Translations under genes and position numbers: made by a program
NCBI GenBank assembly: GCA_949987565.1
Contig: OX465117.1
Span: forward strand, 3,204,214 to 3,268,213
Origin: Luidia sarsii
Taxonomy: Eukaryota; Echinodermata; Asteroidea; Paxillosida; Luidiidae
Length of the DNA stretch: 64,000 bases
Direction: 5' to 3'
Shown: in pieces, positions 2,395 through 63,949 of the stretch
Layout: the number at the start of each line of letters is the position of its first letter
How positions within the stretch are numbered: the stretch's first letter is position 1
The notes under the pieces: generated by a model
Databases searched by the model: none
What the model was told of the DNA's origin: nothing
What the model saw: only the letters and a program-made list of their open reading frames with translations

Positions 2395-2646
2395 TCACAA
2401 GTCCTCTATTGACCCCTAACCTCTGGTCTTTTGATTACTAGTATTAGAAGCAATGGTCAGGTAGATAAGAGGTTCCTAGAATTGATGAACCTTTGAGCCC
2501 GCCTCTTGAAGCAGATACTGTCTGGATAGGAGAGTGAGTTTTGTTTTCTATGTGAATTTATTTGCTATATCCCCAATCTACACTAAAGTCTGTTATAGCT
2601 CATTGGTAGTTTTCTTATTTTTATGCATTTTGTTTGATTTGATCAG

Positions 2647-45055: not shown

Positions 45056-45160
45056 TCAACCTTCGTTCACATCATCAGCCGTATTGATACTCTTGGTATT
45101 GATGTTTGGCTCCAAGTATAAGTAATCATCTCTGTTAAGGTCTGACATAATCAGATATCC
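45056..45160 (-). CDS. EGF-RTK exon 19: C-terminal tail
   Basis: [18 protein letters not shown] then a Ser/Asn-rich end; TGA at 45056-45058. Tyr767 and Tyr769 are possible docking sites. Confidence 0.88.
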   Translation of the reverse strand, partial: GYLIMSDLNRDDYLYLEPNINTKSINTADDVNEG

Positions 45161-48100
45161 CTGAAAGAGTAAAGAGAAAAGGTCAATTAATTGCAGATAA
45201 AATCCTAAATAGGAGTGAAAGTTTCGCAGAATCGAATCGCAATTCATTTGTTGCTGTTTTGAAGAAAAAAAAATCAAAGTTTTCTTTGCCATTTTACAAT
45301 TTGTTCCCAGTCAGTTTTTCCTTTTGACTTTCAGTGAAATTCTTTGCAATCGATAAAACTTCATCGATTTGAATAACATTGCGAAATCGTACATCTTGCC
45401 CAAACTTACTTTTGCGGTATTGACGATTCGATCCTAGACCTTTGTTAAAGTTATTCTGCCTTTGGAGAAGGTCACGCCAAGATCGAAATGCCAGGCCCTA
45501 ACTTTTCAATTTGTATAGTTCATGCAATTTTAGTCAACAAGTAGTACTATTTGTATTGCCAAAAACGTTGGCTTCTTTATACGTTATCTAATCTGAATGC
45601 ACTTACGTTAGCGTCCGCCATCATGTTATCCAGTATCTTACAAATCTCAGTAAATGTCGGCCTGTACTCGGGTTTGTGTTCCCAACAATTTTTCATCATT
45701 ACGTAGCTGTGAATATGACAAATAAAGTGTATGTTTGCATCATAATGGTCACAACCAATTCATGTCCCGAAGACAGGACGGATAAATCTGGAAATGGCAG
45801 TTGCAATTATTTTTTTAATATTATGCCTTGGAATAATGCTATAATACTACGAACACTACACATTTAGATTATGGGGAATTTCTGTTATAACGTATTTTGA
45901 TTAGTAAAAAAACCTGGTGGACTTTGAATGCATTTCCCCCAATAATTAACAAATTAAAAAATGCATTTTGCAAGTTCAAGTATATTGTTAGGTTCGGATC
46001 CACATTAGTTTGCACACGTGTATAATGTGAAATACCGTAACCGAATGTCTATTGTTGCGATTACAACACTGGGACTTACATATCATCACTGCAGCTTTCG
46101 GGTTTGGGCAGCCGATATCCAGCCGTGATCTCGTCAATAACTTGCTTGGATGACATGCCTGGGTAGGGATGTGAACCTGTAACCATAGAATAGAGCTTAA
46201 TCAGCATGTCCATTCTCTTTAGAGCCTACTATTGTTGCATCCAAGTAGTTGTTCTGTTTGTCCCTTACAGTCACCTTTTGGACCTATTGGTGGCTGTTTG
46301 TGCCCATACGATGCAGACGTCAGTATCTTTCCCTGTCAATGGACTAACAATTACTTGTACCGACCATGGTGTTTTATATGGATAACACAGGACCTCTCTG
46401 TCATTTCGCTTCAGTACTGGTCTCTGAGAGAACATAATTACAAGTCAATGTGGCTTCACGCAATGCATGAGTTAAGAGACCTCCACCACTGACGCCATCA
46501 TAGCGAAATGTTGCACAGTGTACAGGATTGGCGCGCAGGATCAGCCAATTAGCTGTCTGCATTTAATCTTCAGCCGTTAACACACATGAAGCCTGCGTCT
46601 GTCATTTAAAACCGTATGCAATGTGAGTGAAGAGAAATAAGTCGTCGAGATGATAAGACTGTATATCTGGACTTACCCAAAGTGACTAGTTCCCAAAGCA
46701 GCACAGCAAATCCCCAAACATCGCTCTTAGTGGTATACAAATTATCAAGAAGTGACTCGGGCGCCATCCAACGAACTGGTACCCGTCCCTTTGATTTCAT
46801 CTCGTACTGGCTAGATTCCTGCACGTCCCTGGCCAGGCCGAAGTCTGACACCTTAGCAACCAGGTCATCACCAAGGAGAATGTTGCGAGTGGCGAGGTCA
46901 CGATGAATACACTACATTATAAATAAAATAAAAAAGATTGACGTTGAACTAGGGGTCTGTAATTAAGGTCAAAAAATAGCTCTGCTGCAAGAAGATTTCT
47001 GGCAATAAGTGACATAAGATATATAGTACAGATGTAGAGATTGTAGAGATAAAGATAACAAGCTTTGCAGAAGGAAAGTGTCAGACGACAATAGCAAAAG
47101 AACTTCATCAACGCACCGAGTTGGATGCGAGAAACTCCATTCCATTGGCGATTTGGCTGGCGAAAGATAGAACTTCACTCGGTAGCAGGAAGTTCCTGGT
47201 CTTCTTCTCTTTCAGGTCGCAGTATTGTTCTTCATTTTCACTCCGTATATATCGTAGGTAAGACTGGAGATTGCCATTTGGCAAATATTCCATAATCAGG
47301 AAAAACGGTTCTGAAAATTTGTAAAGAGTGTACATTACAGTAAACAAAGTAAATATATAAACAAAGTAAAGATCTAGCTAAACAAGTTAAATAAAGGAAT
47401 TTTTAAAAAGAATTGAAAATGGGCAAAGAAAATTATACTAGACCGGGACTTGAAGCCGAGACCTGCAGCCGATTTCAAGAAAAGTTGCGTAAGTTACGCA
47501 ACGTACAAATGTTGCGTAAGTCGTGCGCCGCTATGGCTCTTTTGTGCACTATTGAGAAAAGGCAGCGAAATGTTGCATACGTTACGCAACAAAATGTTGC
47601 GTACGCAACATTTGAAGTTTCGTGAAATGGGCTGCTGTGGCTAAAAGGACCAACAGTCAATTTCACCAAACTCATCGTAACTTACGACGATGCACAAACC
47701 ATACGGCCTATCACAACTAACGATGGGTTATCCATCGTATAACTATAAGTTGAGTTACGATGCATCGTAAGGATTTGTGAAATCCAGCCCAGCACATTAG
47801 CACCTGTGCTACCACGCTTGTAGATGGCAGACAAAATAGTCAACTATCTATGCCAGGTTGGGAGAGGGAGACAGTCAGAGACATCCAATCATTAACTGTC
47901 ATAGTCCTCCAGGGATCATGCCCCGTTTTCAATCAGATGCACACAAACAATTGACCGATTGCGCCTATAGGTCACGTGACCAATAGTGGGTATCAAACAA
48001 TAAGAACATGGCGTCCCCATATCAAGGTGCCGCTGAAGAACATTACGGAGTTTGAACCCACCTAGTACCTTACCGTAATACCCACTATAAAGGCCGCCAC

Positions 48101-51100
48101 CCACGAGAGCTATCTGCTGAGCAAAAATTCTCTCGAGGTAATTAGCTCAGCACGTAGCTCACCGTGTGCGCTGAACTTTTGGTGAGATTTCTGCCTCAAG
48201 AGGCCGTGAGACCAATATGTATCCTGGGTTTTTTTCGCTTCTCGTGGGTGAAAACTCATCGTGTGCGGCGACTTGAGCTACGTGCTGAGCAAAACATATA
48301 TATTTTTGGAAGCCATCACGTGAACAGAGCGTGCGCTTTTATTGGCCAGTTGTTATTTTTGTTGTTATAAGGAAAACTGACTGGGAAATTGTGAAATAAT
48401 TTGATAATCGGCGAAGAGAATTTGAGTGGACAGCCAGGAGAAAGTTCAAATTACAATGAATTGTTTGGATCTACAGGTGCTTAAATGTGTGAGAGAGTTT
48501 TGAGAGACTCAGTTCAAGAACGATAATACGTAGGCCCCCTATAGATTTTAATTCATTTCAATTACCTGCGTTAAATAATTATCTGGAGAACATAATTAGT
48601 TCAGTTTCAGATAACTTGGGTTCTTTTTACATGTTTGCGTAGATCTTTTCAGGCCATGGCAATCCACTTTGCATAATCGTCAAGATTATTTTTTTTTTCA
48701 GGTAGCTTTCTTTGATGGGTCTCTGACAGAAACACGAGAATCGAGCCATAGAACTCTTTCTTTTTGCCAATGCTCGTCTATCTTCAGGGTGGACGACACA
48801 GATACGAACAGGCCTAATTACAGACAGACAACAGCGGGCGCAGGGGCGTAAGAACGCCAATTTGGAAGAACGGACAAATCTATGGCCGTTTTCGAAATGA
48901 AGGCTTAGACTCGGGCTCAGGCTTCGTCTCCGTCTGACAAAACCTAAAAATCCAGGTTTTGGTTTGTTTCCGAATTTGAAGGTTTGTTGGCTTGATAGGT
49001 ACAGGGTATTCCCAAGAAAATGGTCCCAAACGCTTGTTTTAGATGCCTGTGATATTACATCGAGTAAGATATATATGACCGAAGCCTAAGCCCGAGCCTA
49101 TAGCCTTCATTTCGAAAACGGCCTAAAGGCACCAATTAACTTGACGTAATTTGTGTAGGGCGCCCTTTTCCAGGAGACAAAAGAAGATACGTCTTTTTAA
49201 TTTCCAATCTTGTGCGCCAGGTGGATTAACAGCGCAACTGCCATCGTGTCGGGCTGTCATAGGGTTGGCAGCATAGTCACTTGATACAAAGTCCATTATG
49301 TCAGATAAAAGATATAATGAATCGTGTTACCTTTCTCCGTGCAATAACCCAACATGGTGACAACGTTGGGATGGAAACCCAAAGATATGTACATTTGTCT
49401 TTCCTTCTCAAAGTCTTTCTTGTCGCCCTCGCTTGCTGTGTCTGTTCAATTGAAATGAATATCACATCGTAAAGATACATTTGTGTTGCTTTCACCCGCC
49501 ATTATTTTATGTATTAAAAACAATTTTCATACCGTTTAGGTTGTCGTGGTATTTGTGCTTAACGCGATTGCAAGGGTTGCTGCTGTGGTAGTGTGTGCTC
49601 ATAGTTGCTAATGTGGTTGTAGTTGTGGTTGTAAATGCCATTATGGATGTAAATGGATGTAAATTCCGTTGTGGTTGTAGTGGTTGCATGTTTACATCCC
49701 CATTTACATGACTGGTAATAATTGGTGATTATAATAATAACAATAGTAATAATAGTAATAATAATAATAATAAGACACTGAAGAAACAACCAAAGCTTAC
49801 TTTTAAGCATCTTGACGGCAACGGTAGACATGATTCCTTTCTTAATAATCCCTTCTGCCTCCGCTCTGTGTACAGTGGCGAACGAGCCGGCTCCGAGCTG
49901 TTCCATTATGTGGAGTTGCTCCCTCGGGAATTCTTTGTCACCGGGTTCAGAGGTCATCCTGTCGTTCCGTTTGGATCCGGAAGCTCCGGTATGATTTTCG
50001 CTGTAATCATTTGAACTTGTCTGCAATGTTCCCAAATGAAAATAACCGATCTCGTTATCTGAGACCCCAATGTTTTCATTCTAGTACCACCATTCTAAAA
50101 CATAAAATACTTTGCAAATTGTTTGCTTTACCTCATATGAAAATATTCCAACCGATATTTGTTATAGCACAGTTTGATGGATATTCGTGCAAACAACATG
50201 CTTTGTTACATAGTGCATTTTTAACATGGGACCCAACTGGGGGTAGTGCAAGGCAAGGGTTATCAATAAAAGTTAATTAGGCAAATTCCTCTCTATACAT
50301 TAACATAAATTTGTTTGTACATGAACATTCTACATATTCAAACAGTCTTTTTTTAAAGGCCCAATACAACATTGGGAGCATCGGAAAACGTCGATGTCCA
50401 CAGATTTCCTTCCAATTGACACAGTTTGTAGATGGTCGTGATAGAATCCTCATGTGAAATCTTACGGTCTGGTATGCTGTACTTCGCGAGAAATCTTCAC
50501 TCATACAACGTGAGTAATAAACTATTTATTATAGAACGATGCGTAAGCCGTGACTTTTTTTGCCTTTTTCTACTTTCTCAGATTACCATTTTGAGCTTCA
50601 ACCTTCGCAAACTGTGGCAATCATTTGACCTTTACCAATGTTGCATAGGGCCTTTAAAGGGATAATATTTTCATAAATTGAATGCAGACAATTCAATTCG
50701 ATTTTCTAATCGATCTTCTAATCGGTGTTACTTTAAGGTGTAAGCCCTATAACAATTATATACAATTTCTGAAAAAAATTAAGAGATAAATCTTGGAATA
50801 ATGTTTACTCTTTTTTCTGCCATTTCAAGTTGGTGAGCATCAACTGGTTTCTGATATCGTCTCCTTTTCATGTATCTTCGTACCATAATAATGAGTACAA
50901 TAACAAGAATCAACAGAATGACAACGGCTACCACGGATACAGCGATTACGGTCACACTCAATGGTTCCTGTGCATCTGGGGTAAAACAGTGAACAATGAA
51001 AAGTGATTGACTCTGTTATTGATTTATTGATTGATCGATCGATTAATTAATTGAATAATCAAGGAGGTGGACAAGTGTATAACGGATAAAAATAATCTAA

Positions 51101-54100
51101 ACAATAAAATAATAGACTCTGATCTCTGTTTTACGTAATAAGATAATAAATACGCAAAATGTAAACAACTTTTTTTGCGTACTATACGAAATGTTTGATT
51201 GATGAGAAAACGATCAACTATCTTGAATTAAAAGTCACCATCGCTTATAGGAGCCTATTGATTTCAGAGAGTTTTCTGGAGACTGGCTCCAAACTGTGTT
51301 TATTTCATCCATTGTTCTACTCTTACTTGTTTGGCAGTGCTGTCCCGTGAAGCCATCGACGCATTCACACAAACCTTCATCTACATTACATATCCCTCCG
51401 TTCTGACATTGCCTGTCGTTTTCGCAAGCTAAGGTAGGAGTTCAAACATGAACAAATACTATAAAACCACATGCCGAACAGGTTTGATTTTAAATATTAT
51501 ACATTTTGAAAGCGATGTTTAGACATCCATTCCTCGTGTTAGAAATAATTCCATGAACCTTGCTTACCTATCTCACATCGCGGACCTTCAAACACATTCG
51601 AACATTCACACAAGCCGTCTAGACAGAAGCCGCCGTTTGCGCATTCTCTGTCCTCCTTACACGGGCTAGTCTCTGTTAATGTCGGGAAACAGATTAATAG
51701 AAATTATCGTATCACACACTGGCTTATTCATCTTCCTATTCTAAATCTCAGAAAACTATCTGCGAAGGGAATGAATCTTTTCTCTTTTCTAAGTTTAAAG
51801 TTTGCCTCGGGATGATTGCCAGCAAATAAAGATATTGCATGGAGTCTCACGCGCGCGTGAGAGCGGTCCAGCCTGCGTCACAGGGATAAGACGCGTCCTT
51901 CATCGGTGCACACACGCGCGTCACGGAGGATTCGCGTCACGGGATGACATCAAATGGATCGGTGCGTATCATTATTATTTGATGTAGGCCGAGACGATAC
52001 AATTACCAAGATATATATTTGCCTATGTCACGCAGTATAACCGGCAAATGGCGTTTGTAATGGAAACAAATTGTAACGCCGAAATGTAGTGACGTAATCC
52101 ATCTATTCCGCTACGGATCGGAGAGTGATTTAAATATGATAAAACTAGACGCTTGAAAGAGTGAAGAAGAATAGAATATGCAAGGGAAAAGACTCAAAAT
52201 GAATCTAAACTGCAACGCAAGAATAAATCAAAGGAAAATAATGTAAGGAAATGGTCAAAATTCTTTTAATCAAAAATCTAGTAAGATAGCAAAGAAATAT
52301 TTAACGTCCCCTTGATAATATCCCTTGTAAACATCAATAAATTGGAAGATAAAATCGAGTGTTCAGTTTTACTTTGACAGTGTGGTCCGATGAACCCATT
52401 AAGGCATGAACACAAGGCTGAAGGGAGGTCACAACTTCCGCCATTCCTGCAATCCACGTGCTTTGAACAAGCTGAAGTTTGAATTTGAATAAATCAAATA
52501 TCAATTAACTACCTTTCCTCGAATTATAAATCATGAAAAGCTGAGGGCTGAAGAATTTGAAATGTGCCCAACCCCTCACAGCATATTCCAAATGAGCTAT
52601 AAAGCAATATACAAACCCAGCTATAGGATGGAAACCCCTAGCTTTCTGATCATGCATATTTTGGATCTTCGAGTCAGAAGGTAGTTCACGATATCGAAAA
52701 GGGCGCTTACCGATTGTACATAATTGACCTGAGAAATTAGGCCTACATTCACACTGTCCACTATAACAGCTTCCACCGTTAAAACAGTCCGAGTTCTCGA
52801 AACATTCCTCTGCAAGAATCCAAATGATAAACGCAATATTGTCAAAACTAAGCATAGACAAAAGAAGTTCAAATCGTGTCTGTGTACATGTATAAATAAA
52901 CTGCATAGAACATATTAGCCACACCCTGCCCGATACTGGTTAAGGTATCGACAGCATAAGTCCTTGTGTAAAATTTGACCGATTCAGATTGGAAAGTTCT
53001 TCAATACTCTTGTCAGCATACATAACGTGAGTATATTCAAATCAATGGTCATGACGTGCGTATTTTTAAATCAATGGTGATGAGAACCTAAAGTTGAAGC
53101 AAATGTCTTTATTTCTGGCTGGCGTGTTTTAATCTGTTGCCAATCTGTTTCAAGTAACTAGGATACATTAACTTTGACACGTAGAAATATATATTCTATT
53201 CACAAGGAATGCTACAGTAGGTATAGTGCTCGTTGCTTTAACAACGCCACTGCCTGGATTTCCAAATGCCACGTCCATGTTTGGTTTAGTTTACTGGTTA
53301 TATACATGTATTGGCGAATAAAGGAAGCGAATTTTTGTCAATATTCTTCCGATCTTACCCGGAATTTCGCATCTCCCGCCTGTAAATCCCTCAGGGCAAA
53401 TGCATTGATTTTTCCCCGAGCAAAAACCTTCGTTCATACAGTCATCATTGCTCCTACAAGCTGTGGTAAAAAAATCAAAACTTTAATCAAACAAATGAAG
53501 GCGCAAATGAATGGAAACCTTTAGAAGAATTTTGAAAAAAAGCAGAAAAAAATTGACTGAACCGGGACTTGAACCCGAAATCCCTGGTTTGACGTACCAG
53601 TGCTCTGAGCTTTTCAGCCCTTTCAATGGCGGCCGTCCCAAATTGTCAATTTAGGCTATGTCATCTAAAGTCGTTATTTCCTGTCGCATACAGTAATCTG
53701 ACCTCGTCGTTAGACATCATTGTTCTTTAACCACACAACATCTCAGTAACACAGATTCATGTCCTGATCGTAAGCATAAAACATGGAAACACCTGGCTTG
53801 CCTTGATTATTAAGGGGGGACATGTTTACAGTCGTTACAAAATACATTTTGCTAAAATGTTGCAAACTGCATAGACCCTACTGACTAAAATGACCAAAAT
53901 ACAAATAGCAAAGACCAACCCTATAGCATGCCCTTTCCCAAAGGCAGATCGTTCCAAAATGGCAAATAGCTAACAATATTGTTGATGTTATCTAAAGCTG
54001 CCAAGTATTATTATACCGTGGATGTCATTCTACTGCATCTTGGTTGAATTGAATTAGTTACGTCCCAGTATATAATAATCTCATATATTGGATAACACAA

Positions 54101-57100
54101 TAATATTCTTCTACTTACCTTTTTCACAAAGGATACCTTCATAGGGTTCCGTACATATGCACATGCCTTGCTCACATCGGCCACCATTCAGACAACGGTT
54201 GGTGTACGAACATAACTCTGCAAATGTTGACAAAATAACAATGGTGATAACTTTCTATTTGCATCTGGTTTCTCATCTTAGTGCAATGGTCGGAATGGCA
54301 ACATATCGCCTTTACATTTCTAAATCCAATAAACATTTGACACTGATAATAGAAATAATTATGCTTAGAAATTTAAAAAAAAAAGATTTCTCAGTGATAT
54401 AGAGGTTCCGTTAAGTAGTACGGCATACCACTTAAAACTAAACTGCAAGGATATCGATATAAGAATTACCAAGAAAAACGTACTGTGCACTTCGCATAAA
54501 GGCCCCGCAAAGTTTGGTCGACAAGTGCACTCGTCTCCCAACATGCACGAGCCGCCATTCAGACATATGCCTTGCTCCTGTCTCCTACAAAACGAATCAA
54601 AGTCTGCAGGGAAAAAAGAAGGACCACTCGGAACGTAAACAATGTATACATCATGTGTATGTGTGGAGTAATTTGACGATTCTCTTAGTGGGCTTCACTA
54701 CATCGGTACTCCAGCAACACAAATTGGACATAAAGGGGGCGCTGTTTACAAAATAGTCAACAATAAAGGCGACGAAGTGACTGGCAATGGCTTGTGTGCC
54801 ACACGGTTTACGCATAGAAATATACTTGTATCTCCAAAAAGTGGAGGGTGCAAAGTTTCGATCCAATAGCAAGACCTTGTACAGGCAGAAAATAAACTGA
54901 ATCTCATTTTGGGTGGAAGACTTAGCCATGAAATGCATAGGAGACTGCTTAGGCTCCGAATTACTAGCTTGATACTTGCATCGGCGTGTATTTATCACAC
55001 TGGATTTGACTGACTATAGACTGCGCATAGATGCGCTTCAAGTAACAGCCATAGCCGTATCTGTAATAGTCATTTCTGATCCAGTCATACATGACATGTT
55101 ACCTCGTACCTCGCTTTTCTATTCATGGTTTCAGTATATAAAGACTGTAGTATTCTTAAAGTTATGAGCTAAGATTCTTCCAAGGAGTGATAAGATTCTC
55201 ACCGTATTCACAGAATGGGCCAGTCTTCCCCGGTGGACATGAGGTACATATATTATTCTCTTCGACCTCATCAATCTGGCACGTTCCACCATTGCAGTCC
55301 TCTTCAGAAGTGCACGCTTTATATGAATACATATATACAGTTCGTTGGATTAGACTATTATCCAAAACATATATACCGTATAGAAATAATTAACTTATAG
55401 AACCACACTCGCTCGCAGAAGACATCATAAATCTGATATTATTACCAAAAACGTCAACTGTTTATTGAAGTGCTCAACTACTAAACCAACATTTTTAAAC
55501 GAACAGAGGAAGTGATACATGACAAGAGAAATTTAAACCTTTTTCTTTAAAAAGCGAGAGAAATTTGCAAGCCATTTTTTTCGTTCGTAATAAAAAACCT
55601 ATTGATGAATACTTACTGCGTCTATCACAAACAGGTCCGAAAAATCCTGGCTCGCATTCGCACGTTTGGTCATGAGGTGGATATTCCGCCGGACATTCTC
55701 CATTCAAACACTCCGATGGGACACAAGGCTTATCGGGTACTGAATATTCATGAATTAAAACGGAATTAAACCTCATGTCATTAGTGATAGGAATAGATTT
55801 TTTTTCAACGTGCATCTTTTTACTTCACATAGAGAAGACCCTTTTTAGGGATCTTGTTCTAAGAATAATTTGCACTTGAATTTCATTTCTTTTGCTGGAT
55901 GTTATTATGTGTACCGATGCCGAAAAGTGGTAATATTTTCAGTCACAGAGACAAAAGTGACCACAATGCAAATATCAAAGATCAACTGACAGACAGATCG
56001 TTCCAAAATGGCAAATAGCTGTAGCAGTATTCTTGATGTTATCTAAAGCTGCCAAATACCGTGGTTGTCATTCTACTGCGTCTCCATTAAATCAGTAACG
56101 TCCAAGCTAATACTCCCAGTATATAATCATTTCATTTATAGGTAAGGTTTTCGATATTGCACTAAACCTTAACTTGTATCTTCTTATTTTCGTCGCCAAA
56201 ATCCTCATTATAAACAAACTGACAGGTGGCATTCTTTGATTGATATTTGTCACTGTCTGGTTTGTTTCTTTGTTGGTATATGATCGCTTCTTTTGAGTTT
56301 ACTTTATCATTTACAATATTATCTTTTCATTACAGTATTATGTTTATATCAGATAAAACAACCATATGTTCAAACACTCTGGTGAGACACATGGCTTATC
56401 GGATACTGAATAATCATGAATTATAACGGAATTATAGCATTAGTGATAGGAATAGAATTGATGTTTATTTCAACATGCATCTTTTCTCTTCACCTAAAGG
56501 CGACCATTTTAGGGGTCTTGTTCTAAATTCTTTTGCTGGATGGGAACCGATCCAGAAAAGTGGTCATATTAATTTTCAATTTGAAGTCCCATAGACAAAA
56601 ATGACTACAATGCAAAAATCAAAGATCAACCCTAGCATGACATTTCTCAAAGGCCCAAAAGGTAGTCATATTTAGGGCCCAATATTTCAGTTTCATGTCC
56701 AAGAGACAGGGATTAAATATGACCTGTAGGACAGGCTTTAAGTGCCACTTTGTTTACTCAGTTGAATACGAATAATTGATAGCTTCAATTAGGAATGGTT
56801 GAATATACATTGTAACGCCAAAGATTCATATACCCATATACTATCTAATTCGAATCAATTAGTTCCGGCTTGTGACTCGTAATTATAATGAGTATGGTCA
56901 TGCAGCTACCTATGGGCCGTGGTAGTAAGCGCATATACTTACCGGATTTCTCACAGTAGAAGCCAGTGAATCGCATGGCACAATCACAGGATCTGTAGCC
57001 AAACTCACTTACTACACACTCGCCTCCATTTAAGCAGTATAAGTTATCGCAGGGTTCTTGACCTGAACCTTTAACCACGGAATAAGCACAAGGTATGATT

Positions 57101-59283
57101 ATTGAGAGAGAAAAAAATAGGCATGATCTGCGGTGAATGAGAAAAATGGGACAAAGCAAAACAAAACAATGAAAAAATTACTAGGTCATTTTTTAAAGCC
57201 AAAAACATCATTTGGAAGTATTTTTGATAGCTGTAAGGTTGGCCATGAATCATTAAATCGTTCAATGAGCATGAGCATGGGATGATACTTATTCACTCGG
57301 CTTATATACGAGCAAGATTTCAACAACAAAAAATCGTGCGAGATGAAACCGGCCGAACATTTCAGAGCAATCATTGGTGCTGATATTTGTCCCGCTATAC
57401 ATTTGAAGCTAAACTTAATTCGAGGTTTGGAATCTTCCTCTCCGGGCCAATCAAATCCCGACCATGGTCAACGAACCTCGTTTTACTGACTCGGTAGTCT
57501 TTTTCAGATTTTGGAATTTGAATGAATTAGTTCACCCCTTTTATACAGTCGATGTATGACGATCGACACAATGACGTCATTAGACCAGTAACCTTAGGTG
57601 ACCTCGACAACTTTGAAATGGCAGGATAACCAGTGATATTGACGATGTTCACACCCACGTACAAGTACAACGTACATGGTCATTTCCTGACCGTAATGGA
57701 AGTACCACCCAGGTAAAGACTACAGTAGACTAGTTGGCTATATGGGAAGGCCGCAAAATCAGAGGTCCTGGTCCAATCCAAGTTTTCTCTGCCTTTTGTC
57801 AAAATTGCTCAAAGGATCGCAGTTAGTTTGTATTTTATTTGTTGACTTCCAAGTCAATTACAGACAAGAAGGACGATTGCAGGTTGCCAACTTGCCAATA
57901 CAATTAGTATTTAGCCGCATACTGATTTTAAATACCATTACCAGTATGAGCCGTGATTGGTTATTCTGTGCAGCAGACATAATGGCGTCCAAACCCTCAG
58001 AATGCGTTCAATGCACAATAAAAACCCTTGTAGGTTTGTGGTCTATGAGTTTTAGAAGCAACCAACCGCTCGGTTTATATTTCCGAAGCGTCGAACTGTT
58101 TCCTTTGTTCGTCATAATTTACACAAGGCTAGATGGCTTGTACACTGTAGGCATGGGAGTTCAAAGATGCACCCTACTTTTGTACGGTGTATAATATATA
58201 CTGGGACTGAAGCCAACCAAATAGTTAACTTTTACCATCATTGCATATGCTATTGATATGTATGGGGACCTTACATTGAATGAACAGTGATTTTTTAATT
58301 TCAGTCTGTCTGAACATGAACATGAGCTAACCTAAGGCTTACGTGAGGGTTAATACTTCCTATTTATGATTGTGTCCATCGATGCCATGCAAACAAAATA
58401 CAGATTTTTTTTATTTTTATTTATCAATAATAACAAGTTATAACGATTAAGTAATGGATCCTTACAATACCTTTTAGATTATTGCGAGGGTTGATTTGAA
58501 ATAATTATGTCTTCGTTGGAATTATGGATTCTTTCTAGTCAGCAAAAGTTTAATCCGTTATACGTCACTTTGAATCATTCGTTTTATATGTAGTGGGCCT
58601 GACGTTTCGATCCTAGCAAGACTTTTCTCAAAGGCCTTTGAGAAAGGTTCTGCTAGGATCGAAACGTCAGGCCCACTAAATTTTGAGATTTGCATTTTGG
58701 TAATTTTAGTCAGTAAGCAGTTTGCAACATTTTTGCATATCGCATTAAACATGTAATTAACAAATTAATTTTAAAAATCTCACGGTATCCAATGTATAGT
58801 GCTATATGAACCATAGGACGTCATCTTCATCAAACACGACACACGACATTATTCACTTGTAAAAAAGGTCATCTTTATCAACAGTTTATTGAGAAAGGTT
58901 ACCCTTTTTTACAAGTAAATAATGTCGTGTGTTATTATCATCGGTTCCCATTGCATCAAACCTAAATAAAGTTCAGACTGTATTGAGAGTGAGACGTGCC
59001 TGACATTTAAATCGCGTGCAACTATATGAAAGTTAAAACATAGAAATTGTCTTGAACGAAAGACCGTTCGTAGCATTAAGTATTTTATCAAGTTTTGGTA
59101 CATGAAAGTGACACAAATCTTCGAAGCAACATAGGCTATACAGCATATACTTTATGCTTATCTTATCGGATGTAATGAATAACTCTGTCAACAACTAGTG
59201 CTAACAGACAACAAGTGTGGAATAGTCAGCTTACCTCTTTGGAAGACAAGAACAGCGACCAGGCTGAATATCAAATTGCCCAT
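45056..59283 (-). CDS. Receptor tyrosine kinase with ten EGF-like repeats
   Basis: Nineteen exons encode 788 residues and every splice phase closes. Order: signal peptide (1-16), EGF1-10 (17-379, one exon each, all phase 1-1), membrane helix (about 386-409) with a stop-transfer RRYMKRRR, tyrosine kinase (about 465-750), short tail. Kinase residues present: P-loop GAGSFATV (478-485), Lys505 in VAVK, Glu522, HRDLATRN with Asp615, DFG 633-635, APE 660-662. The tail has DDYLYLEP, possible SH2 docking tyrosines. By kinase it resembles the FGFR/VEGFR/Tie/Met side of the RTKs; an EGF-only ectodomain matches no standard vertebrate family. Tie receptors have EGF modules but also Ig and FN3. The ligand is unknown. 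Confidence 0.9.
45607..45706 (-). CDS. EGF-RTK exon 18: helix H-I
   Basis: [20 protein letters not shown] with the invariant Cys-Trp and Arg-Pro. 100 bp, equal to its paralogue's exon. Confidence 0.92.
46080..46176 (-). CDS. EGF-RTK exon 17: helix G region
   Basis: [20 protein letters not shown] then [10 protein letters not shown]. 97 bp, the same size as the matching exon of the neighbouring kinase gene. Confidence 0.92.
46677..46911 (-). CDS. EGF-RTK exon 16: catalytic and activation loops
   Basis: [17 protein letters not shown], a single activation-loop Tyr in [21 protein letters not shown] and [13 protein letters not shown]. The last motif is usually [12 protein letters not shown]; Ser-to-Gly and Gly-to-Ala changes are seen here. 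Confidence 0.93.
47117..47310 (-). CDS. EGF-RTK exon 15: hinge and kinase insert
   Basis: [18 protein letters not shown] is the hinge/helix D, followed by a short charged insert and [17 protein letters not shown] (helix E). Ends in phase 0 at GTGCGT. Confidence 0.9.
47440..47470 (-). repeat. tRNA-like SINE fragment
   Basis: GACCGGGACTTGAAGCCGAG on the plus strand is the inverse of a B-box region and matches the start of the tRNA-like unit at 53555. Confidence 0.45.
47472..47628. mobile_element. Small snap-back element A
   Basis: 157 bp bounded by ATTTCAAGAAA and TTTCGTGAAAT, full of TTGCGTAAGTTACGCAAC-type palindromes on both sides. Confidence 0.55.
47660..47783. mobile_element. Small snap-back element B
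   Basis: 124 bp bounded by ATTTCACCAAA and GGATTTGTGAAAT, with ATCGTAACTTACGACGATG inside inverted to GTTACGATGCATCGTAA. Same end motif as element A, different interior. Confidence 0.55.
47784..48883 (-). other. Intron between helix C and hinge exons, no feature
   Basis: Part of the 1.9-kb intron 47311-49330. Unique-looking sequence with no recognised gene. Confidence 0.5.
48884..49123. mobile_element. MITE family 3, copy 4 (best ends)
   Basis: GGCCGTTTTCGAAATGAAGG and CCTTCATTTCGAAAACGGCC are perfect inverses; the next 20 bp on each side pair nearly as well. Confidence 0.88.
49331..49441 (-). CDS. EGF-RTK exon 14: helix C
   Basis: [20 protein letters not shown] then [12 protein letters not shown]: helix C with its Glu and the HPN/VV strand. 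Phase 1-1. Confidence 0.9.
49731..49774. repeat. (TAA)n microsatellite
   Basis: Interrupted ATAATAATA/AATAGTAATA tract of about 44 bp just inside the intron next to the P-loop exon. Confidence 0.9.
49801..50020 (-). CDS. EGF-RTK exon 13: juxtamembrane, P-loop, VAVK
   Basis: Ser/Asp-rich juxtamembrane, then [20 protein letters not shown] and TVAVKMLK. The third P-loop glycine is Ala. Confidence 0.92.
50353..50657. mobile_element. MITE family 2, copy 2
   Basis: TTAAAGGCCCAATACAACAT at left and ATGTTGCATAGGGCCTTTAA-like right end, flanked by TTAA. In the intron between membrane and P-loop exons. Confidence 0.88.
50809..50975 (-). CDS. EGF-RTK exon 12: transmembrane
   Basis: [20 protein letters not shown] plus LIIMV is a 23-25-residue helix followed by RRYMKRRR. 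Phase changes from 1 to 0 here, marking the end of the EGF exon cassette. Confidence 0.9.
51327..51428 (-). CDS. EGF-RTK exon 11: EGF10
   Basis: [20 protein letters not shown] then [11 protein letters not shown]. Acceptor CCTTAG, donor A|GTAAGA. Confidence 0.88.
51568..51672 (-). CDS. EGF-RTK exon 10: EGF9
   Basis: [20 protein letters not shown] then [10 protein letters not shown]. The acceptor AACAG|AG is the one that keeps phase 1; a nearer ACTAG would shift the frame. Confidence 0.86.
51842..51960. other. CpG-rich palindromic patch in an EGF intron
   Basis: TCTCACGCGCGCGTGAGA is a perfect palindrome, followed by ACACGCGCGTCACGG. Stands out in an AT-rich intron; no function assigned. Confidence 0.5.
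52373..52471 (-). CDS. EGF-RTK exon 9: EGF8
   Basis: [20 protein letters not shown] then [11 protein letters not shown]. Donor A|GTAAAA. Confidence 0.87.
52711..52809 (-). CDS. EGF-RTK exon 8: EGF7
   Basis: [20 protein letters not shown] then RPNFSGQLC. Acceptor TTGCAG, donor G|GTAAGC. Confidence 0.88.
53359..53460 (-). CDS. EGF-RTK exon 7: EGF6
   Basis: [19 protein letters not shown] then [12 protein letters not shown]. Acceptor CCACAG, donor G|GTAAGA. Confidence 0.87.
53555..53620 (-). repeat. tRNA-derived SINE head
   Basis: The minus strand folds roughly as a tRNA: B box GGTTCAAGTCC intact (53565-53575), anticodon stem CTGGT/ACCAG. The position before the anticodon is C instead of U and the acceptor stem does not close, so it is a pseudo-tRNA. 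Confidence 0.55.
53905..54110 (-). repeat. Intronic segment duplicated with the EGF cassette, copy 1
   Basis: GATCGTTCCAAAATGGCAAA..GATGTTATCTAAAGCTGCCA also occurs at 55930-56140 and partly near 56600. Confidence 0.85.
54119..54217 (-). CDS. EGF-RTK exon 6: EGF5
   Basis: [20 protein letters not shown] then [10 protein letters not shown]. Acceptor TTGCAG, donor G|GTAAGT. Confidence 0.87.
54484..54603 (-). CDS. EGF-RTK exon 5: EGF4
   Basis: [20 protein letters not shown] then [12 protein letters not shown]. Acceptor CTGCAG, donor A|GTACGT. Confidence 0.87.
55203..55316 (-). CDS. EGF-RTK exon 4: EGF3
   Basis: [31 protein letters not shown]. The fourth-fifth Cys spacing (CTSC) is laminin-EGF-like. 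Confidence 0.85.
55617..55739 (-). CDS. EGF-RTK exon 3: EGF2
   Basis: [26 protein letters not shown]. Its 5' part and flanking intron are duplicated as a fragment at 56368-56490. Confidence 0.88.
55930..56140 (-). repeat. Intronic segment duplicated with the EGF cassette, copy 2
   Basis: Matches 53905-54110, including the following CATTCTACTGCRTCT and CCCAGTATATAAT. Unlike copy 1 no intact EGF exon follows it. Confidence 0.85.
56368..56490 (-). pseudogene. Relic of a duplicated EGF2 exon
   Basis: GTTCAAACACTCTGGTGAGACACATGG then CTTATCGGATACTGAATAATCATGAATTA matches the 5' part of exon 55617-55739 and about 80 bp of its upstream intron. The exon's 3' two-thirds are missing, so it cannot encode a module. 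Confidence 0.8.
56943..57068 (-). CDS. EGF-RTK exon 2: EGF1
   Basis: [27 protein letters not shown] has the six-cysteine spacing. Acceptor TTAAAG, donor G|GTAAGT. Confidence 0.88.
58591..58678. repeat. Palindrome from Penelope-like ends
   Basis: TAGTGGGCCTGACGTTTCGA then TCCTAGCAAGACTTTTCTCA is inverted around 58635. The adjacent TTTTAGTCAGTAAGCAGTTT also lies beside the motif at 8301, so both belong to one family. Confidence 0.85.
58841..58930. repeat. Long hairpin
   Basis: ACACGACATTATTCACTTGT then AAAAAAGGT is inverted at 58899-58930 with few mismatches. Confidence 0.85.
59235..59283 (-). CDS. EGF-RTK exon 1: signal peptide
   Basis: ATG at 59281-59283; [17 protein letters not shown] is a compact signal sequence. 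Donor G|GTAAGC, phase 1. Confidence 0.8.
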
Positions 59284-61123: not shown

Positions 61124-61207
61124 CTAGTCGGAGTCTGTACTTGTCGGCTGACCGGGTTCCAAGTACGTGTAGTCATCTGGGTTTAAACTTGCCATCTCCA
61201 GATATCC
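61124..61207 (-). CDS. Kinase 2: C-terminal tail
   Basis: [20 protein letters not shown] then PTSTDSD and TAG at 61124-61126. Confidence 0.88.
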   Translation of the reverse strand, partial: GYLEMASLNPDDYTYLEPGQPTSTDSD

Positions 61208-63949
61208 CTGGAATAAAAACACATGAACAAATATAAACAATGAAATCAAATCATCATAGGTGGCGAGAGAGATAAGCACTAAAATGGAATATCATTGCTT
61301 TAACAATCGAGACGGGAGAAAGGTTAATGACAATAACCAACTTGTTCGATGGTACCGGTAAGCCATTTTGATTAGAGTTGCAGTCTCATCAAAATATTTT
61401 ATAGGCTCGGGTTGACTGAAGTACATGTATTTTTTATTTAGTATTTTTTATTAGTATTTTTTACTACCGAGAGGTCATTTAAATCTTGATTAACTCCATG
61501 GTGTTTTTTTAACAACAGTCGACTTGTCATCATTTCAATTGTGTGATTATCGTGGGAGAGATTTTCCATTGTGGTTGAATAATAAATGCAAGGAATGAGT
61601 TTAACTATGAGTATTAATACCGTGGCGTCTGCCAGCAGGTCGTCTAGCTTCATATGAAGTTGAGCGAAATCTGGTCGAGCATCAGGCCTCTCCTGCCAGC
61701 AATCCGTCATGACCTTGTATCTGCAAAACAAGAAAACGCATCCAGGCCTATACATTCCTGCTCCTTCGATCTCTAATGAGATATTATAACGTTACAAGAT
61801 TTAATGTTAAAAAAACAGTGAACACTCAAAACGGGTGATAGGCCTAATTAGAGAACATTTTGACAACCATTGTTGAATGTATCGAATGATAGCATAACCG
61901 TTCAATGAAAGCCAAGCCGATGCATTGTGGGTTTTTAAAACAAATCAATCAGAAATTTTCAGCATCCCTGATCAAAGCAGACCAACCCTTCGGCAAACGA
62001 ATTCTTTTTATAGTGTAGACTATTAAGTTCGCCAGGCTGTTTTGGTTTTGCAATTACTCCATTCTAATTAATTGAAGTTCATAAGGTAATACATGTAGAT
62101 GAATAATGCGATCTGCTTACTGACGAGAGAGACCTGAAATATGCAAATGAGTATCAGTGTTAGATATCTCGGTCCCTTCCCAAAGGATTTCCTCCTAGCT
62201 GCCTTGAGTTTCCACTAATAAGAAATCTTTCGTTTCTTACATGTCTGGACTACAGTGGTCTGGTTTCGGAAGACGGTATCCTTTCTTGAGCTCACTAATC
62301 ACTTTCTGGGATGACATACCGGGATAAGGATGAGATCCTGTTGAAGTCCAGTAAAAATCAAAACAGAATATAGATCTTATCAAATGTGCTTCATGTACTA
62401 TGTGATACAATGTGAGCGATTCACAAGAGGGCGCCCTCTAGAGCTTGCAACACGTTGGGCAATTACAATGCAAACTCTTGAGGGCGCACTATTGCGAATC
62501 GCCCGTATTATCGGCGTTTTTACGAAATAGCGAATTAATCCGCGCGCACAACACAGACGATGTATTTTGTGTGGAACGATATAGCTCTGCACGATCCGAA
62601 CATCCCGCAATTCAATGTTTCGCAAAAAGTGTGTCAGAAAGATCTGACTGATTCTGACCGCTGCCCCACCACCACAAAGAGATGGATTTTTGGGGGGAAG
62701 GCCGCTGTCTAAGCGCTCGATAGCTCAGATGGTATATAGATCTACAGAACCGGTACTTTAGACCAGAGGTCTAAGTCTTAGTCTTAGTCCAGTCTTTGTT
62801 TGTTTGCCATTTTTCTTTCTTTCTTTCAAAACTGAAGTAAAACGAAAATAAAAAATGTAAAAAGAACAAAAAAGAAAACCCCCCAAAAACAATCATTATG
62901 CAAACTTACTTCTGTGGTTTATATTTCACGCCCTCTTTAAACACAGCATTGGATGATCCCAGGCTGTAATATTTCATCTTATACACTTGAAATCAGAGAT
63001 TCACGTGCTATCTTTACCTAATGTGACGAGTTCCCAGAGCAGAACCCCGAAGGACCAGACATCGCTCTTAGTGGTGTACATGTTGTTGATCAATGACTCC
63101 AGCGCCATCCAGCGAACTGGTACCCGTCCCTGCTCATATCAAAGGGCAAGAGTTGATTACCAATCCATCAAAGTAATGAGAATCCCGCCACGGACTCGGT
63201 GTGGCTGTCAGGTAGAATGAAGTGATTGTACATGTACTCGTTTGTCCACCGTACATGTATAATGGATGACAGTCGCTAGCACTCATTAACGAAGGACAAG
63301 AAATTATCTTAGCTGGCTCAGAATTAAATCATGTCACATTTGAGGCAAAGAATTGCACGTGTCTTGATTAGTACATTTTGGGGTTAGGTTTCAATTGTCC
63401 TTTGCAGATTTTGAAGATTTCTGAATGTTCGTTGGTATATGATGATGATGATGAATTTATTCAAAGGTAAAGATATAGAACATGATAAAGGAAATGATGT
63501 TTGATTCTCGATCGGGGTTAATGAAAATGTCAACGCCGCCATGTTGGTGTATAATATTACATTGGATGGATTGAATTATGATACTTTTTTCAAATTCCAA
63601 AATTGGGAAAGACAACTATTAGCTTTCTTCGCCAATTTTTAAATTTCTTCAAGAGTTCCCAGTCAGTTATACTTCTGTTTGTTTAACATTTTTGTTCATT
63701 TAAAGATATTTTGATTTACTTCATCACACATTAATGAAAGAGCCTTCTGCAAACATGCATGGCACGATGACGAAGCGCGAGAGAGCGCTCGCAACAGCGC
63801 CCTCTCACGTCATAATACGAGTATACCTGTGATTGCATTTCGTACTGATTTCCCTCGGTGATGTCCCTGGCCAATCCAAAATCGGACACTTTGCAGATAA
63901 AACCCTCTCCTAGCAGAATGTTACGTGTGGCTAGGTCACGGTGGATGCA
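61124..63949 (-). CDS. Second receptor tyrosine kinase, 3' half (cut by window edge)
   Basis: Five exons in consistent phase encode the kinase from IHRDLATRN to the end: 63827-63949, 63018-63129, 62241-62337, 61621-61720, 61124-61207. DFG is present; the APE motif is ALE (WMALESL), as in Met-type kinases; [13 protein letters not shown] is standard. The tail DDYTYLEP parallels DDYLYLEP of the EGF-RTK. Exon sizes 97 and 100 match that gene; this one has an extra intron in the activation loop. P-loop, Lys and ectodomain lie to the right of the window. Probably a tandem duplicate. Confidence 0.9.
61621..61720 (-). CDS. Kinase 2: helix H-I
   Basis: [20 protein letters not shown] then [13 protein letters not shown]. 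100 bp; donor GTATTA is weak. Confidence 0.9.
62241..62337 (-). CDS. Kinase 2: helix G region
   Basis: [20 protein letters not shown] then LPKPDHCS. 97 bp, phase 1 to 2. Confidence 0.92.
62414..62503. repeat. Imperfect inverted-repeat element in a kinase 2 intron
   Basis: GCGATTCACAAGAGGGCGC pairs with GCGCACTATTGCGAATCGC. About 90 bp, probably a small MITE. Confidence 0.6.
62713..62775 (+). repeat. tRNA-derived SINE head
   Basis: CGCTCGATAGCTCAGATGG has a good A box (TAGCTCAGATGG). The B-box region (ACCAGAGGTCTAAG) is degenerate and a T-rich tail follows. Confidence 0.45.
63018..63129 (-). CDS. Kinase 2: end of activation loop, helix F
   Basis: [20 protein letters not shown] then [18 protein letters not shown]. 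The intron before it (63130-63826) is absent from the EGF-RTK gene. Confidence 0.92.
63827..63949 (-). CDS. Kinase 2: catalytic loop, DFG
   Basis: [16 protein letters not shown] then VSDFGLARD and NQYEMQSQ. Phase 0-0, acceptor CCGCAG, donor GTATAC. Confidence 0.92.

What the first reader, a model, noticed from the sequence alone, without database searches (positions are those of the whole stretch)
45056..59283. A receptor tyrosine kinase whose whole ectodomain is ten EGF modules
All 19 exons splice in frame to a full signal-EGF(10)-TM-kinase protein. From established knowledge no vertebrate RTK family has an EGF-only ectodomain; Tie has EGF with Ig and FN3. One exon per EGF, all phase 1-1, explains how such an array could grow. 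It may be a lineage-specific signalling receptor that binds ligand through EGF repeats.
Basis: partly seen in the sequence, partly recalled or inferred. Interest (0 to 1): 0.78.

Follow-up and report, generated by a model that had tools for sequence, protein, structure and literature searches.

The report
Starfish EGF-repeat receptor tyrosine kinase
This starfish gene encodes a cell-surface signalling receptor whose outside is nothing but EGF repeats, and it belongs to an echinoderm family that keeps one signalling engine while exchanging the outer part.

Summary
On the minus strand, 59283..45056, 19 exons splice in frame to 788 aa: signal peptide, ten six-cysteine EGF modules (one exon each, all phase 1-1), one TM helix and a tyrosine kinase with intact motifs. 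The genome is a starfish, not a vertebrate: the kinase is 75-82% identical to Acanthaster, Patiria and Asterias proteins that are also EGF-only. It is not Tie: joining it to human TIE2 is rejected (p-AU 0.013 and 0.0045). It is one of 33 echinoderm rows forming one kinase clade (100/99), sister to Ig/FN3 'FGFR2-like' echinoderm receptors and near arthropod Cad96Ca/Stitcher. Ectodomains differ within the clade: EGF, F5/8C+WSC+EGF, Calx-beta, LDLa+EGF, Ig. All 40 family tails read carry Y[LV]xM (PI3K-type YxxM); at that place 0 of 29 outgroup tails do, though 4 of 15 Cad96Ca have a YxxM further on. Likely mechanism (inferred): ligand binds the EGF array, the kinase trans-phosphorylates, and the YLIM tail recruits PI3K. 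Ligand and expression are unknown. A new variant of a known kind; relatives already sit in databases as automatic models.

The parts
59235..59283 (-). Exon 1: start codon and signal peptide ([16 protein letters not shown]), phase 1 donor
   Evidence: in-frame stop upstream of the ATG
56943..57068 (-). Exon 2: EGF 1 (residues 23-55)
55617..55739 (-). Exon 3: EGF 2 (64-96)
   Evidence: (acceptor corrected to ATTCAG)
55203..55316 (-). Exon 4: EGF 3 (101-135)
54484..54603 (-). Exon 5: EGF 4 (143-174), O-fucose-type motif
54119..54217 (-). Exon 6: EGF 5 (180-208)
53359..53460 (-). Exon 7: EGF 6 (212-241)
52711..52809 (-). Exon 8: EGF 7 (247-275), O-fucose-type motif
52373..52471 (-). Exon 9: EGF 8 (279-309), O-fucose-type motif
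51568..51672 (-). Exon 10: EGF 9 (315-343)
51327..51428 (-). Exon 11: EGF 10 (347-377)
50809..50975 (-). Exon 12: transmembrane helix (about 387-411) and start of juxtamembrane
49801..50020 (-). Exon 13: juxtamembrane, glycine loop LGAGSFATV (477-485), VAVK lysine (K505)
49331..49441 (-). Exon 14: kinase N-lobe
47117..47310 (-). Exon 15: kinase hinge and D-E insert
46677..46911 (-). Exon 16: HRDLATRN (613), DFG (633), activation-loop Tyr 646, APE (660); one exon here, two (123+112 bases) in the neighbour gene
46080..46176 (-). Exon 17: kinase C-lobe
45607..45706 (-). Exon 18: end of kinase
45056..45160 (-). Exon 19: signalling tail [18 protein letters not shown] (YLIM from Tyr 756, YLEP from Tyr 769) and stop
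61124..63949 (-). Second family gene, 3' part only: exons 63827-63949, 63018-63129, 62241-62337, 61621-61720, 61124-61207 (171 residues); kinase from HRDL on and tail GYLEM...DDYTYLEP; runs off the window at its 5' side, so its ectodomain is not seen

Best explanation
An intact receptor tyrosine kinase gene of a starfish, a member of an echinoderm receptor family. Shown by sequence: a ten-EGF ectodomain, one TM helix, a kinase with its catalytic motifs, a tail with YLIM and YLEP, orthologues in three other starfish, a head-to-tail paralogue, and a kinase clade sister to the Ig/FN3 'FGFR2-like' receptors of echinoderms. Inferred origin: an Ig-type receptor of the Cad96Ca-like lineage was duplicated, and copies exchanged the ectodomain by gaining phase 1-1 modules (EGF, F5/8C, WSC, Calx-beta) while kinase and tail stayed. 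Inferred mechanism: a ligand, perhaps an extracellular-matrix or cell-surface protein or a glycan, binds part of the EGF array and brings two receptors together; the kinases trans-phosphorylate Tyr 646; tail Tyr 756 in YLIM becomes a docking site for PI3K p85 SH2, and Tyr 769 in YLEP possibly for a Crk-type SH2.
For: Gene model. Orthologues P0004, P0005, P0006. Clade of 33 echinoderm kinase rows with WINDOW: 91/99 (62 rows), 100/99 (59 rows), 99/97 (59 rows, tail columns left out). Sister to five echinoderm Ig-type receptors: 76/96, 99/95, 99/97. Ectodomain variety inside the clade: precomputed domains, ten proteins scanned. Tail motif Y[LV]xM in 40 of 40 family rows read (rows include near-copies and isoforms) against 0 of 29 outgroup rows at the same place, with 12 different residues at the x. 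Tandem neighbour. Some family members share a contig length with Ig-type receptors in Patiria (28030815), Amphiura (67122163) and Strongylocentrotus (53101916). Stitcher/Cad96Ca, the nearest studied kinase, activates PI3K in Drosophila by an unknown adaptor (PMC3720245, passages).
Against: No transcript, protein or activity data. PI3K docking rests on a motif; YxxM is not confined to the family (4 of 15 Cad96Ca rows have YYNM at the next tail tyrosine), and P0094, a likely Asterias relative not in the trees, has FLQM, no tyrosine, at the place. The ligand is unknown, and array length is not conserved (7 to 11 EGFs), which speaks against one fixed ligand footprint unless it lies in a few modules. 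In the first tree, with long human outgroups, the forks around the clade were partly unresolved. Not all family members share the contig of the Ig-type receptor: in Patiria P0036 and the P0043/P0053 group, in Amphiura P0029 and P0058, and in Acanthaster the FGFR-like P0071 lie on other contigs. The EGF ectodomain's top-scoring match is an Octopus EGF protein (P0194), so ectodomain similarity alone says little about descent. Replacement of Ig by EGF is the simplest reading, not proven (at least 6 ectodomain changes on the tree). Faster ectodomain than kinase change is also seen in FGFR-like controls, so it is no sign of special diversifying selection.
Confidence: 0.72

Rival explanations
1. A Tie receptor that lost its Ig and FN3 domains and kept the EGF modules.
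For: Tie is the vertebrate RTK known for EGF modules (recalled). In the trees human TIE2 lies just outside the large group that holds the family.
Against: Holding TIE2 together with the family is rejected: p-AU 0.0129 and 0.00454. Family kinases group with Ig-type echinoderm receptors and Cad96Ca to the exclusion of TIE2 (100/97). Only one Tie, human and on a long branch, was tested.
Confidence: 0.06
2. The echinoderm orthologue of Cad96Ca/Stitcher, with the cadherin domain replaced by EGF modules; it would then act in epidermal wound response and growth as Stitcher does.
For: Apart from echinoderm and multi-kinase rows, arthropod Cad96Ca proteins head the listed matches. A 51-row group of the family, Ig-type receptors and Cad96Ca has support 100/97. 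Stitcher activates PI3K (PMC3720245), is called Ret-like and wound-activated (PMC11908783, passages), and a review table lists collagen as its ligand (PMC6982143, passage). Some Cad96Ca tails also hold a YxxM (4 of 15).
Against: Family plus Cad96Ca alone as one clade is weakly rejected (p-AU 0.040); Ig-type echinoderm receptors and a hemichordate receptor lie between them. At the family's YLxM place Cad96Ca rows have YIEL or YIDL (15 of 15). No cadherin domain here.
Confidence: 0.15
3. An innate recognition or adhesion repertoire: a tandem family with exchanged ectodomains that reads diverse surface or matrix ligands rather than one growth factor.
For: Several kinds of ectodomain on one kinase chassis; a tandem copy and many Patiria members with one contig length; changing EGF number.
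Against: Ectodomain change is not out of proportion to kinase change when compared with FGFR-like orthologues; no expression data; the own genome could not be searched.
Confidence: 0.2
4. A gene-prediction artefact: exons of an EGF gene and of a kinase gene joined by mistake.
For: No RNA evidence; one long first intron (57069-59234).
Against: The same order signal-EGF-TM-kinase in three separately predicted starfish proteins, and EGF-plus-kinase proteins in sea urchins, brittle star and sea cucumbers; all phases agree; the TM exon follows the last EGF exon directly.
Confidence: 0.03

Closest known systems
Starfish orthologues: Acanthaster planci 'Ret-like isoform X2' (P0004), Patiria miniata 'FGFR2-like' (P0005), Asterias amurensis uncharacterized (P0006)
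   Same: EGF-only ectodomain, TM, kinase 82, 80 and 75% identical, tail YLxM...YLYLEP
   Different: 11, 7 and 10 EGF modules; ectodomain 35-40% identical; database names disagree
Other EGF-bearing echinoderm RTKs of the family (P0015, P0016, P0018 starfish; P0021, P0025 sea urchin; P0033, P0035 sea cucumber; P0019, P0031 brittle star)
   Same: Same kinase clade (P0025 was not in the trees) and tail motif
   Different: 2 to 11 EGF modules; P0025 also has LDLa
Family members with other ectodomains (P0014 F5/8C+WSC+EGF; P0026/P0028 Calx-beta; P0034/P0036 Ig)
   Same: Same kinase clade and YLxM tail
   Different: Different ectodomain
Echinoderm Ig/FN3 'FGFR2-like' receptors (P0044, P0046, P0051, P0054, P0056)
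   Different: Ig or Ig+FN3 ectodomain; tail YLVL or YIVL, not YLxM. PMC8180256 (passages) describes Fgfr1, Fgfr2 and 'Tk9' of echinoderms in one FGFR group, Tk9 without the full FGFR domain set; whether Tk9 belongs to the present family I could not check
Cad96Ca/Stitcher of arthropods
   Same: Next kinase group out (51-row group 100/97); PI3K output shown in Drosophila (PMC3720245)
   Different: Cadherin ectodomain (PF00028 in many listed rows); tail YIEL/YIDL at the YLxM place, YYNM further on in 4 of 15
Tie receptors
   Same: EGF modules outside, tyrosine kinase inside (recalled)
   Different: No Ig, no FN3; kinase not with TIE2
EGF-ectodomain tyrosine kinase receptor of the ichthyosporean Creolimax
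   Same: EGF ectodomain on a tyrosine kinase (PMC4739763, figure legend)
   Different: Unicellular holozoan; kinship not tested here; probably convergent

Membership tests
Echinoderm YLxM receptor tyrosine kinase family (defined here) | Kinase inside the 33-row echinoderm clade | tested here: met
   91/99; 100/99; 99/97
Echinoderm YLxM receptor tyrosine kinase family (defined here) | C-terminal Y[LV]xM after the kinase | tested here: met
   YLIM in this gene, YLEM in the neighbour; 40 of 40 family rows read, truncated P0032 and P0052 not read; likely relative P0094 has FLQM; the clade holds without the tail columns
Echinoderm YLxM receptor tyrosine kinase family (defined here) | Absent outside echinoderms | tested here: inconclusive
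   Only the best 120 of 2309 and of 6765 proteins were seen. Crinoid P0051 and hemichordate P0153 fell outside the clade; hemichordate P0122 and the multi-kinase rows, some ranking among the family by summed score, were not put in a tree; no crinoid or hemichordate genome was searched
Tie | EGF modules together with Ig and FN3 in the ectodomain | tested here: not met
   No Ig or FN3 in the protein. Of 68 tblastn hits of 21 related ectodomains outside the exons, 4 lie inside the gene, all at E 1.7-3.0; the strong Ig/FN3 matches are at 15053-22670, beyond the stop codon
Tie | Kinase groups with Tie | tested here: not met
   p-AU 0.0129, 0.00454; human TIE2 only
FGFR | Ig ectodomain | tested here: not met
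FGFR | Kinase groups with human FGFR1/2 | tested here: not met
   p-AU 7e-28, although FGFR1/2 are the best single-domain matches among the 60 PDB sequences shown of 2494
RET | Kinase groups with RET; cadherin-like ectodomain | tested here: not met
   p-AU 0.0003; no cadherin
Cad96Ca/Stitcher | Cadherin ectodomain | tested here: not met
Cad96Ca/Stitcher | Exclusive kinase clade with Cad96Ca | tested here: not met
   p-AU 0.040, weak; wider group with Ig-type receptors is supported
EGFR/ErbB | Receptor L and furin-like domains outside | tested here: not met
Active receptor tyrosine kinase | Catalytic activity | not testable with these tools
   Motifs VAVK, HRD, DFG, APE intact; third glycine of the loop is Ala, as in many family members
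PI3K-coupled receptor | p85 binds the phosphorylated YxxM | not testable with these tools
   Motif only; consensus recalled

The most novel reading that the evidence does not exclude
Echinoderms own a modular receptor system: one kinase chassis with a built-in PI3K docking tail, duplicated partly in tandem near its Ig-type relatives, onto which at least five kinds of ectodomain (EGF arrays, discoidin-like F5/8C with WSC, Calx-beta, LDLa+EGF, Ig) were exchanged, in the EGF case by phase 1-1 exons, so that one intracellular output (growth, survival or repair) is wired to many different extracellular cues.
Probability: 0.4. Interest if true: 0.68.

Novelty: new variant of a known kind. Interest (0 to 1): 0.47.

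Why it matters
It is a clear natural case of ectodomain exchange on a constant receptor tyrosine kinase, with exon phases, a tandem copy and the likely Ig-type parent group all visible, so the order of events can be tested. The echinoderm RTK work read here centres on FGFR and VEGFR; this family, with a YxxM tail and Stitcher-related kinases, is a candidate for growth or wound signalling that would not be found by looking for vertebrate families. The database names (Ret-like, FGFR2-like, Cad96Ca-like, MuSK-like, EphA1-like) are misleading and need mending.

Tried and rejected
Tie origin: rejected by trees and AU tests. FGFR membership, suggested by the PDB ranking: rejected. RET membership, suggested by a database name: rejected. 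Extra ectodomain exons hidden in the introns: of 68 tblastn hits of 21 related ectodomains outside the 19 exons and gene 2, 4 lie inside the gene (one at 48460-48564, three at 50378-50443), all E 1.7-3.0. A special burst of ectodomain change: not supported, since FGFR-like orthologues show a larger contrast (ectodomain 57-73%, kinase 91-95%; starfish EGF orthologues 36-52% and 78-87%; three pairs each). One-to-one descent of single EGF modules: only partly visible (reciprocal best matches with P0004 for 5 of 10 modules, two of them off the diagonal). Origin of the EGF array: the search with residues 17-385 listed (120 of 489) mostly Notch-ligand, SNED1 and fibropellin-type proteins, and of the starfish orthologues only P0005; uninformative. 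Sea cucumber papers that name 'Cad96Ca': passages read in PMC6037860 (a phosphopeptide of a Cad96Ca-like protein in regenerating intestine), PMC9854957 and PMC12784826; the peptide is in none of the proteins held, so no link to this family.

Own slips: the ectodomain count of 8 changes used a wrong label (P0022 as Calx-beta, not borne out) and two fragments; corrected to 6 changes over 48 coded rows. In one search one family row (P0028) seemed to lack YxxM because of where my script cut the tail; one search shows YLRM there.

Rows left out: from the 120 rows each I put 52 database proteins in the tree, with 9 human kinases and the window. Choanoflagellate-like and other multi-kinase proteins, truncated P0032 and P0052, P0025 (insert), P0094, near-copies and most Cad96Ca rows were not used. 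For some searches I dropped human MET, EGFR, MUSK and P0058 because of long branches and added gene 2; support rose after that. The tail count takes the 33 family rows of the second tree and adds P0025, P0030, P0049, P0055, P0058, P0060 and P0062; it counts rows, some of them isoforms or near-copies.

Nothing usable: the genome search did not complete. The two papers most likely to have described such genes (sea urchin RTKs, Lapraz 2006; sea urchin kinome, Bradham 2006; recalled) are not held. Ten paper searches listed none whose title or abstract start names this family; 'Tk9' in PMC8180256 may be a member. That does not show that it is unpublished. No structure was predicted.

Full report
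WHAT IS THERE. The minus strand of 45056-59283 holds a 19-exon gene. The introns are GT-AG. Exon 1 is a signal peptide ending in phase 1. Ten exons of 99-126 bases follow, each phase 1-1 and each carrying one EGF module with six cysteines; a pattern count finds ten modules and 60 cysteines before the TM helix, so no cysteine need be unpaired. Then come a TM exon and seven kinase exons. Pfam finds EGF families and a tyrosine kinase domain (9e-90, residues 471-745) and no other ectodomain family. The kinase motifs [15 protein letters not shown] and APE are intact. The tail reads [18 protein letters not shown].

WHICH ORGANISM. Three starfish proteins have the same architecture and the highest identity: Acanthaster planci (P0004), Patiria miniata (P0005) and Asterias amurensis (P0006) (P0001-P0003 rank above them, of which P0001 and P0002 were seen to hold several kinase domains whose scores add up). 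Kinase identity is 82, 80 and 75%, ectodomain identity 39, 40 and 35% (for P0005 over 287 columns). The vertebrate comparison in the finding does not apply.

NOT ALONE. The search list (best 120 of 2309 proteins) goes on with echinoderm kinases at 49-66% identity whose precomputed domains differ: EGF arrays in other starfish, sea urchins, sea cucumbers and brittle stars; F5/8C with WSC and EGF; Calx-beta; LDLa with EGF; Ig. Pfam scans of ten proteins bear out EGF in P0004, P0005, P0006, P0016, P0021, P0022 and P0033, F5/8C, WSC and EGF in P0014, Calx-beta in P0026 and Ig in P0034. Cysteine counts give 11, 7 and 10 EGF modules in the three starfish orthologues and 2 to 8 in nine other proteins with EGF as the only ectodomain family seen (P0015, P0016, P0018, P0019, P0021, P0022, P0031, P0033, P0035); these are database gene models and may be incomplete.

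NEIGHBOUR. tblastn of the window protein and ten relatives against the window found a second kinase on the same strand, upstream. Its five last coding exons (63827-63949, 63018-63129, 62241-62337, 61621-61720, 61124-61207) splice in frame to 171 residues ending in a tail with GYLEM and DDYTYLEP. It groups with the starfish EGF2/F5-8C subfamily, not with the finding's gene (99/96; 100/99). Its exons of 123 and 112 bases correspond to one exon of 235 bases in the finding's gene, so an intron was lost or gained. Its ectodomain lies outside the window. In one search, P. miniata P0005, P0011-P0015, P0026, P0030 and P0032 share one contig length (28030815) with the Ig-type receptors P0054 and P0061; Amphiura P0019, P0022, P0027, P0031 and P0052 with P0046 (67122163); Strongylocentrotus P0025 with P0073 (53101916). 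I read equal length as the same contig. Other members lie elsewhere: Patiria P0036 (19347424) and P0043, P0053, P0055, P0060, P0062 (38186250), Amphiura P0029 and P0058, and Acanthaster P0028, P0034, P0048 and the FGFR-like P0071 apart from P0004 and P0016.

DESCENT. Tree 1 (62 kinases) put the window gene with its three orthologues (100/100) and all 33 family rows together (91/99), with open forks around and human MET, EGFR and MUSK on very long branches. After those three and P0058 were dropped and gene 2 was added (59 rows), the family of 33 rows had 100/99, its union with five echinoderm Ig-type 'FGFR-like' receptors 99/95, with three starfish Ig/FN3 receptors and one hemichordate Ig receptor added 98/83, and with nine arthropod Cad96Ca 100/97, leaving TIE2, RET, human and insect FGFR, VEGFR2 and KIT outside. 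Leaving the tail columns out gave the same picture (99/97, 99/97, 97/84, 100/97). Forcing human TIE2 next to the family is rejected (p-AU 0.0129; 0.00454), as are RET (0.0003) and human FGFR1/2 (7e-28). Family plus Cad96Ca alone is weakly rejected (0.040). The family was delimited on the first tree, so the tests are not wholly blind; Tie is represented by human TIE2 only, and only 9 human kinases were used. Since the sister and next groups carry Ig or Ig/FN3 domains, replacement of an Ig ectodomain by EGF and other modules is the simplest history (at least 6 changes of ectodomain kind over 48 coded rows); it is an inference. Echinoderm Fgfr1, Fgfr2 and 'Tk9' have been placed in one group with a weak relation to chordate FGFR (PMC8180256, passages), and sea urchin FGFR1 and FGFR2 have separate roles (PMC4549668, passages).

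TAIL. In 40 of 40 family rows read, the tail has Y[LV]xM, with 12 different residues at the x. At the same place 15 of 15 Cad96Ca rows have YIEL or YIDL, 10 of 10 echinoderm FGFR-like rows YLVL or YIVL, and 4 of 4 Ig/FN3-type rows YIxI or YIxV. Against uniqueness: 4 of 15 Cad96Ca rows have YYNM at the next tail tyrosine, and P0094, a likely relative that was not in the trees, has FLQM. A fixed Y and M around a free residue is what selection on a YxxM (PI3K p85 SH2) site would leave; the consensus is recalled and binding is untested. 26 of 40 rows also have Y-x-Y-[LMI]-x-P further on. The nearest studied kinase, Stitcher/Cad96Ca, drives growth through PI3K and TORC1, and its adaptor was unknown (PMC3720245, passages).

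MECHANISM. Shown: architecture, intact motifs, conserved tail. Inferred: the EGF array binds a ligand, dimerisation activates the kinase, Tyr 646 in the activation loop is phosphorylated, Tyr 756 recruits PI3K. Three modules (E4, E7, E8) have the O-fucose-type motif C-x4-[ST]-C (motif recalled), so Notch-like glycosylation is possible. The varying number of modules suggests that only part of the array binds. A review table gives collagen as ligand of Cad96Ca (PMC6982143, passage); for this family that is no more than a lead.

CONTROLS AND LIMITS. Ectodomains change faster than kinases, but FGFR-like orthologues show the contrast even more. Ig and FN3 matches exist in the window at 15053-22670 on the same strand, more than 22 kb beyond the stop codon of the gene and without a kinase exon nearby: a separate gene. 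Inside the gene the related ectodomains give four matches at chance level. No RNA data, no own-genome search and no structure prediction. Prior print: passages of PMC8662651 discuss ectodomain shuffling in RTKs, with no hit for 'echinoderm' or 'Cad96Ca' in its main text; PMC4739763 mentions an EGF-ectodomain tyrosine kinase receptor in Creolimax. The two sea urchin RTK papers are not held, so earlier notice of sea urchin members is likely but unchecked.

VERDICT. The gene is a new variant of a known kind: a starfish EGF-only receptor tyrosine kinase in an echinoderm family with exchanged ectodomains.

Noticed in passing
window 15053-22670, minus strand: Pieces of an Ig/Ig/Ig/FN3 gene (I-set 6e-12 in a piece at about 21812-22117, weaker Ig at 22497-22670 and 17682-17774, fn3 3e-6 at 15053-15262), matching echinoderm FGFR-like ectodomains in tblastn; no kinase exon found nearby.
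   Followed up: partly
window 24259-32347: An 8-kb tandem array, 45-base unit made of a 15-mer (GGACTGTGTGGGTGC), about 180 copies, GC skew about 0.6 and GC 0.58-0.60 against about 0.40 around it; it makes a spurious 2113-residue open frame on the minus strand.
   Followed up: no
window 18748-19218: Tandem GGACT pentamer, 94 copies; the pentamer is the first five bases of the 15-mer of the large array 5 kb away.
   Followed up: no
window 1-2395 and 2776-3501: Satellite-like arrays of 66-base (36 copies) and 23-29-base units at the window's left end.
   Followed up: no
window 46677-46911 against 63018-63129 and 63827-63949: Exon of 235 bases in the finding's gene equals two exons of 112 and 123 bases in the neighbour; an intron lost or gained between tandem paralogues; 118 bases of this stretch are still 80% alike.
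   Followed up: partly
protein residues 477-485 of the finding's gene: Third glycine of the kinase glycine loop is Ala (LGAGSFATV); so it is in many family members, while P0034, P0035, P0043, P0048 and P0058 keep Gly.
   Followed up: partly
window 58588-58681: Directly adjacent 47-base inverted repeat, 91% complementary, in the first intron; might be a small palindromic mobile element.
   Followed up: no
window 8748-9362, minus strand: Open frame of 205 residues, not searched.
   Followed up: no
P0122 (Ptychodera flava), P0010 (Culex), P0001, P0002: Proteins with two to five tandem tyrosine kinase domains; their summed scores push them up the lists ahead of true relatives.
   Followed up: no
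Apostichopus japonicus, PMC6037860: A 'Cad96Ca-like' phosphopeptide changes in regenerating sea cucumber intestine; the peptide is not in the two Apostichopus family proteins held or in any other held protein.
   Followed up: partly
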